In this document: in pieces, positions 6,793-7,567 of the stretch
How the letters are laid out: every line of letters starts with the position of its first letter
How positions within the stretch are numbered: the stretch's first letter is position 1
Assembly: GCA_023974075.1 (NCBI GenBank)
Contig: CM043799.1
Coordinates: 6,352,585-6,416,584 of the forward strand
Direction of reading: 5' to 3'
Length of the DNA: 64,000 nt
Origin: Chaenocephalus aceratus
Lineage: Eukaryota > Chordata > Actinopteri > Perciformes > Channichthyidae
Notes under the pieces: generated by a model
Told to the model about the DNA's origin: nothing
What the model saw: only the letters and a program-made list of their open reading frames with translations
The model's database searches: none
Position numbers and translations under genes: made by a program

Positions 6793-7081
6793 CTTACGCA
6801 AGGCACTTGAACCATAACTATTGTCGCTCCTCTCCACTGTGTTCATCTCTCAACATTATATTTAGAGCCCTTTAAACATTTAGAAACAGCCCTTCATAGC
6901 AATTTCTTATAGCAGAAGGAGAGGGAGACCAAAACATGTCAAAAAGCTGAGTCCCCATACTCGTCCTCTCCCTCCGAGACATAGGCCAACAGAGGCATTT
7001 GATACGGGGGGAGAAGCATCTTTTCCCTCAATGGTGGAACTGATTAGTCTGACACATAATGAGCGGATGCACGGCACACCA

Positions 7082-7567
7082 CAACACCCACATGATAGTC
7101 TCTGTCCATGGATATAACTCGAATGGTTTCATCAGACCCCTCTGAGGGCAGGATGGGCTGGTTACACGCAGCACATTTAGGCGCCAGGACCCTGTGGTAG
7201 TCTTTCAGACAGTAGATTTTATTCTCAGTGTCTACAGTGAAGGGCACTCCGTCCAGGCTCTCGTTGCAGATGACGCAGCGGAAACAACCGGGGCGGTACA
7301 ACTTCCCCAGGGCCTGCCGGCCTGCATGTCCATGATCAGATGTCCACCTGCGTTGCACTTGTCTGCAGACTGCTGGAACCCAGAGTACAGAAAGTCCTCT
7401 TCACAGAAAGCCCTTCCTGCGTCATAGTAGAACGCCTTCCCTCTCAGCCTTTGACTACAGGCGCTGCAGGTGAAGCAGCTGTCATGGTAGAGGCTGCCCA
7501 TAGCTTGGCAGGCCTGGCTGGCTCCATACACCGTCTCGTTGCACTTAACACACTCCTGTTTCAGCGG
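7082..7567 (-). pseudogene. Captured LIM-domain segment, LIMD1/Ajuba family (LIM1, LIM2, start of LIM3)
   Basis: The peptide is a clear LIM-domain string of the Ajuba/LIMD1/WTIP family, closest in my memory to LIMD1 (CQAMGSLYHDSCFTC, EDFLYSGFQQSADKC, GSDETIRVISMDRDYH). Those host proteins are scaffolds acting in cell adhesion, Hippo signalling and microRNA silencing. LIM1 is complete: C-x2-C...H-x2-C-x2-C-x2-C...C-x2-D. LIM2 lacks two zinc ligands (second Cys replaced in CNAGG, His replaced by Arg in YRPGC). A CAGGCC duplication near 7325 shifts the frame between LIM1 and LIM2. LIM3 stops after DRDYHV, and the sequence then becomes unrelated. Host family members are, as I recall, interrupted by introns here, so the intron-free copy implies an RNA intermediate. 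It lies in the env position, just before the 3' end of the provirus, and is read in the proviral sense. Confidence 0.85.

What the first reader, a model, noticed from the sequence alone, without database searches (positions are those of the whole stretch)
7044..7567. A retrovirus carrying a captured LIMD1-like LIM-domain cDNA
Seen: an intron-free LIM1-LIM2-partial LIM3 segment of the Ajuba/LIMD1 family lies in sense orientation inside a provirus with paired LTRs, PBS, PPT and target duplication. Known: acute transforming retroviruses arise by capturing processed host genes, and a fish epsilonretrovirus is known to carry a host cyclin-like gene. Inference: ERV1 descends from a fish retrovirus that transduced a LIMD1-type scaffold gene. 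I know of no described retrovirus carrying this gene family.
Basis: partly seen in the sequence, partly recalled or inferred. Interest (0 to 1): 0.92.

Follow-up and report, generated by a model that had tools for sequence, protein, structure and literature searches.

The report
Icefish retroelement carrying captured LIMD1 exons
A virus-like jumping element in an Antarctic icefish once picked up a spliced piece of the fish's own LIMD1 gene and has since been copied with it hundreds of times, while the intact host gene and a related element without the piece are still there to show how it happened.

Summary
Observation confirmed. On the minus strand, window 5660-15996 is a young provirus (LTRs: one substitution, two small gaps; 4-bp target duplication). 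Window 7088-7558, in sense, is spliced limd1 cDNA: six exons, five introns cleanly absent, 94-100% identical exon by exon to limd1 in the same genome, which by scaffold lengths is Chaenocephalus aceratus, an Antarctic icefish. It is no assembly join: the exact chimeric junction occurs 223 times. A LIM-less sibling provirus reads CAG|GTGGGA, a splice donor, exactly where LIM copies run into limd1's splice acceptor, so capture by chimeric splicing can be read directly. Corrections: the carrier is at least two LTR families of gene-poor elements (window Gag lacks about 1.7 kb; no pol or env found), related to gag-complete class I proviruses. LIM's frame is broken in the window and in nearly all copies compared, changes about neutrally, and usually lacks an upstream in-frame ATG: probably a passenger, not an oncogene. 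Closest precedent: crocodilian ERVs with KIT-ligand and nectin3. The papers searched report no LIMD1 capture.

The parts
5656..5659 (.). target-site duplication CCAT, left copy
   Evidence: flank reading
5660..6759 (-). 3' LTR of the provirus
   Evidence: 1100 bp, pair aligned
6760..6771 (-). polypurine tract AAAAGAGGGAAT
   Evidence: abuts the 3' LTR
6772..7087 (-). post-LIM region of the element; part of it is 69.5% identical to a stretch 3' of the splice donor in the LIM-less sibling
7088..7558 (-). captured limd1 cDNA: six exons (LIM1, LIM2, start of LIM3), five introns absent, frame broken in this copy
7559..8207 (-). element's own leader segment joined to limd1; in the LIM-less sibling it ends in a splice donor
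7703..7895 (-). 63-bp tandem repeat, 3.1 copies, inside the leader segment
8208..11806 (-). long stretch without pol or env frame; shared with family B up to about 10106
11807..12298 (-). open frame; 11808-12143 is 82% identical to DNA inside the protease-RT frame of L048
11965..13077 (-). Gag frame with weak zinc-knuckle matches; about 1.6-1.8 kb present in relatives is missing inside it
14877..14890 (-). primer-binding site TGGTGACCCGACGT (tRNA-Trp-like; tRNA identity recalled)
14893..15996 (-). 5' LTR
   Evidence: 1104 bp
15997..16000 (.). target-site duplication CCAT, right copy

Best explanation
A class I retroelement whose leader segment ended in a splice donor once lay in sense orientation upstream of the limd1 exon that opens LIM1, in a notothenioid fish. 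Its transcript was spliced from that donor into the limd1 acceptor and carried the following limd1 exons, introns removed. The chimeric RNA was packaged with an element RNA, and reverse transcriptase switched template inside the exon for the start of LIM3, regaining the element's 3' end, PPT and LTR. The product was mobilised in trans by gag/pol-bearing relatives, split into at least two LTR families and passed 220 copies. An early form had an open LIM1-LIM2-partial LIM3 frame; most copies now share a frameshift, so LIM is today a passenger. Shown: donor gene, spliced structure, both junctions, LIM-less sibling with a donor at the junction, copy number, shared derived changes, near-identical LTRs. 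Inferred: founder insertion at limd1, co-packaging, template switch, helper in trans, loss of function.
For: Same-genome limd1 exons and clean intron loss. 5' junction at the limd1 acceptor, 3' junction inside an exon without poly-A. LIM-less sibling on C5 with GT at the exact junction, LTR pair 96.5%, PBS, and post-LIM homology 3' of the donor. 223 exact junction copies. Three changes from host (YVGG to YDAG, YHPG to YRPG) in all 31 aligned copies of both families, and both signatures in C. gunnari and P. georgianus proteins. LTR pairs 1/1025, 0/1025 and 0/424 mismatches in three other copies. A gag-complete relative with the window's LTR type, 89.9%, and the same PBS. Frameshift in 30 of 31 copies and near-neutral variants.
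Against: No founder insertion is left in limd1 intron 1 of this genome. The LIM-less sibling is only 72-88% identical in blocks, is a single place at up to 1 mismatch, and the relaxed search did not complete. Helper action is not tested. B-B and A-A pairwise ratios (0.31, 1.19) and the host-element LIM1 ratio (2.42) scatter widely on small counts, so neutrality is weakly shown. About 33 places keep the in-frame exon join, so a functional phase is not excluded.
Confidence: 0.8

Rival explanations
1. The LIM fragment is a working accessory gene: a truncated LIMD1 that promotes host-cell growth or interferes with host LIMD1, as the cyclin-like genes of a walleye retrovirus are thought to do.
For: One fetched copy (L043) is open for 356 residues through two LIM domains; about 33 places keep the in-frame exon join; C. 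gunnari protein P0001 is in frame through LIM2; B-B pairwise ratio 0.31.
Against: Frameshift in 30 of 31 aligned copies; distinct variants 0.67 and 0.81 nonsynonymous per synonymous per site; in-frame ATG upstream in only 8 of 28 anchored copies, and L043 is not one of them.
Confidence: 0.12
2. limd1 was copied by a LINE as a processed pseudogene that happened to land in an element.
For: The copy is intron-free.
Against: No poly-A, 3' end inside an exon, 5' end at the acceptor and at the splice donor of the LIM-less sibling.
Confidence: 0.03
3. The limd1-matching RNA itself, not a protein, is kept for a use such as regulating host limd1 or serving as spacer in the packaged RNA.
For: LIM DNA stays 90-98% identical to host in the 31 copies although its frame is broken; the copies are young.
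Against: Recent common origin explains the similarity; no expression or small-RNA data were available.
Confidence: 0.03
4. Assembly join or contamination.
For: None found.
Against: 223 exact junctions at separate places, different target sequences at four copies, element-signature proteins from two other icefishes.
Confidence: 0.01

Closest known systems
CrocERV29 with KIT-ligand and CrocERV31 with nectin3 (PMC4299795; abstract and passages read)
   Same: Germline proviral groups that captured a host mRNA; the captured frame travels with several copies.
   Different: There nine and six copies or insertions with retained frames under purifying selection, KIT-ligand without loss of an ERV domain; here more than 220 copies, mostly frame-broken, pol and env absent in the window, another gene, and a LIM-less sibling showing the splice donor.
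Acute transforming retroviruses (chimeric-transcript capture; PMC515179, passages)
   Same: Spliced host exons in sense in a provirus that lacks viral genes; 5' junction made by splicing.
   Different: No transforming activity shown, frame mostly broken, germline family rather than a tumour isolate.
Walleye epidermal hyperplasia virus with cyclin D-like orfA/orfB (named in a passage of PMC4299795)
   Same: Fish retrovirus with host-like genes.
   Different: There the extra genes sit in a replication-competent virus; here a gene-poor element.
Plant LTR retrotransposons with host gene pieces, such as maize Bs1 (recalled)
   Same: Non-autonomous LTR element with a host cDNA fragment.
   Different: Here a vertebrate class I retroviral lineage with donor gene and LIM-less sibling in the same genome.

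Membership tests
LTR provirus / endogenous retrovirus | Paired LTRs with TG..CA ends, PBS, PPT, target duplication | tested here: met
LTR provirus / endogenous retrovirus | gag, pol and env in the same copy | tested here: not met
   Window: partial Gag frame, no [YF]xDD in sense frames, no pol or env frame
Class I (gamma/epsilon-like) retroviral lineage | RT closest to MLV-type | tested here: met
   Only for one LIM-bearing locus on C9 (L048), best PDB matches MMLV RT, E 2.8e-28; the window copy has no RT
Host-gene-transducing (acute-type) retrovirus | Intron-free host exons in sense inside a provirus, junctions consistent with chimeric splicing | tested here: met
Host-gene-transducing (acute-type) retrovirus | Captured gene is translated and transforms cells | not testable with these tools
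   Frame broken in the window; no expression data
LIMD1/Ajuba-type LIM proteins | Three C-terminal LIM domains of LIMD1 type | tested here: not met
   Donor is limd1, but the element keeps LIM1, LIM2 and the start of LIM3 only, and the frame is broken
LINE-made processed pseudogene | Reaches the mRNA 3' end with poly-A | tested here: not met

The most novel reading that the evidence does not exclude
The captured limd1 fragment gave its carrier an advantage when first acquired (an in-frame LIM1-LIM2 product acting on host growth control, or later limd1-matching RNA), and this drove two LTR families through icefish genomes: a germline analogue of an acute transforming virus whose capture event is still readable.
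Probability: 0.12. Interest if true: 0.88.

Novelty: new variant of a known kind. Interest (0 to 1): 0.7.

Why it matters
Capture of host genes by retroviruses is well known, but the intermediates are usually lost. Here the donor gene, a carrier without the gene, the chimeric junction and hundreds of young descendants lie in one genome, so the chimeric-splicing route can be examined base by base and the fate of a captured gene followed from an open frame to a widely copied passenger. It also shows that some icefish proteins annotated as LIM or WTIP genes are element copies.

Tried and rejected
WTIP as donor: I leaned to it first from recall; same-genome exons and the protein search favour LIMD1.

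limd1 intron 1 as source of the element's leader: its 4.9 kb, held in L032 and L033, do not match the window.

Hidden pol in the filler: no [YF]xDD in sense frames; the roughly 510-bp piece present in L014 but missing from the window shows stops in the three sense frames.

Naming the Gag lineage by protein search: two hits and no telling name.

Selection on LIM: counts small, ratios scattered.

Counting LIM-less siblings with a relaxed pattern and filler copies by DNA search: not completed (92, 94, 97, 99, 100, 103, 104, 116, 120; 44, 48, 106, 121).

Full report
What is there. The window lies in a genome of 1,064,297,438 bases in 3032 contigs. Contig lengths 48,033,548 (C3), 33,456,537 (C15) and 43,377,216 (C1) equal the longest scaffold, the N50 scaffold and chromosome 1 of the published Chaenocephalus aceratus assembly (PMC10522714, passages); that paper gives 3135 scaffolds and 1,065,717,810 bases, so the held copy is slightly smaller. 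On the minus strand, 5660-15996 is a provirus: LTRs aligned over 1105 columns with one mismatch and six gap bases, a CCAT duplication, a PPT and a PBS; that the PBS matches tRNA-Trp is recalled. In three other copies the LTR pairs differ at 1 of 1025 (L001), 0 of 1025 (L006) and 0 of 424 compared bases (L007). Their duplications are CCCG (L001) and AGCT (L007); in L006 one of four bases differs. I take the family as recently active.

The LIM segment. A search with a LIM3 segment found three host loci. The one on C16 (L030) ends like Pagothenia LIMD1 (97.8% over 46 residues); the other two look like WTIP and Ajuba relatives (my reading). L030 and the neighbouring L032 give six exons that align to window 7088-7558 at 94.1-100% DNA identity. 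Borders are GT..AG, with introns of 5633, 1024, 678, 883 and 1487 bases. The element's host part begins at the acceptor of the exon that opens LIM1 and ends after CATGTGG inside the exon for the start of LIM3. This copy has lost GT near the 5' end, carries a rearranged exon join and a cysteine-to-glycine codon.

A large family. The chimeric junction has 223 exact copies (108 forward, 115 reverse; control 0). Of the 20 loci fetched, eight have the window's LTR type (family A: L009, L012, L013, L014, L017, L019, L021, L028). Twelve share mainly window 7036-10106 (family B: L010, L011, L015, L016, L018, L020, L022-L027; L025 also matches 6752-6856). Family B has an LTR of about 550 bp with its own PPT and a similar PBS. 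L009, L010 and L011 look like tandem proviruses. Trees without support values put most A and most B copies apart, with L017, L019 and L025 near the base.

One capture. Thirty-one LIM copies, the window's own included (17 A, 14 B; none dropped), were aligned to spliced limd1. All 31 differ from the host at four positions. Three of them give YDAG for YVGG and YRPG for YHPG; at the fourth the host of this species is the odd one, since Pagothenia LIMD1 agrees with the element. Both signatures stand in P0001 (C. gunnari) and P0002 (P. georgianus), so I take these annotated proteins as element copies. L043, not among the 31, reads YDAG but YLPG. CNKTVYGASQ in the element fits Pagothenia rather than Eleginops LIMD1, which suggests capture after the split from Eleginops; this rests on a residue or two. 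The exon-join frameshift is in 16 of 17 A and 14 of 14 B copies; 33 places genome-wide keep the in-frame join at up to one mismatch, 30 of them exactly. L043 is open for 356 residues through two LIM domains.

How it was captured. A pattern of leader plus splice donor matched one place, C5:7213317, with one mismatch. The locus is collinear with the element in blocks of 72-88% identity up to GCTGAAACAG, then reads GTGGGA where LIM copies have limd1. It has its own LTR pair (96.5% over 791 columns), a PBS reading TGGTGACC, no detectable Gag, and 3' of the donor a stretch 69.5% identical to the window's post-LIM region. It is a LIM-less sibling, not the direct ancestor. The simplest reading is splicing from the element's donor into limd1, then a template switch back into element sequence, the chimeric-transcript route described for oncogene capture (PMC515179, passages). 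limd1 intron 1 shows no match to the window, so the founder insertion was not found.

Helpers. The window Gag matched 113 places (111 of 486 candidates scored). In many the same Gag lies in pieces with about 1.6-1.8 kb between them that the window lacks. Three loci of a more distant group (NC part 59-61% identical) have frames of 1400-1625 codons. One closer relative on C1 has the window's LTR type (89.9% over 1050 columns) and the same PBS, and none of the seven exact junctions listed on C1 is near it. On C9 a Gag match is followed by protease and part of RT (MMLV RT, E 2.8e-28) that runs into family B filler, with an exact LIM junction 2.3 kb beyond the fetched stretch. Helper action in trans is inferred.

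Does LIM do anything? Distinct variants give nonsynonymous/synonymous ratios per site of 0.67 (LIM1 part) and 0.81 (LIM2-LIM3 part). Pairwise ratios are 1.19 and 0.55 within A, 0.31 and 0.31 within B, 0.64 and 0.83 between A and B, 2.42 and 0.76 against host. In 28 of 33 copies that have an exact anchor, an in-frame ATG upstream exists in 8, and the frame stays open past LIM2 in 2, L043 and L044; only L043 keeps the host frame to the 3' junction. I take LIM as a passenger today and leave a functional past open.

Known and new. Eight paper searches listed no report of LIMD1 capture by a retrovirus or of this family; the library holds open-licence papers only, and I saw listings and the passages named. 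The closest precedent is the crocodilian ERVs (PMC4299795). Notothenioid genome growth by transposable elements is known (PMC10256766, passages).

Noticed in passing
window 2952-3719 (+): Open frame with a DDE_Tnp_4 transposase domain, E 2.3e-29, outside the provirus; PIF/Harbinger-like by recall.
   Followed up: no
L009, L010, L011: LIM element units lie in tandem 6.8-7.0 kb apart with 99.5-99.9% identical repeats, as from LTR-LTR recombination or adjacent insertion.
   Followed up: partly
C9:24765587-24773046, L048: LIM-bearing locus that keeps Gag, protease and part of RT before joining family B filler; the last 2.3 kb before LIM were not fetched.
   Followed up: partly
P0001, P0002: Public proteins of C. 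gunnari and P. georgianus annotated as LIM/WTIP genes carry the element's signature changes.
   Followed up: partly
L042:1517-1740: Short tandem units follow the splice donor in the LIM-less provirus.
   Followed up: no
L023:1-4045: Satellite array of about 115-bp units next to a family B copy.
   Followed up: no
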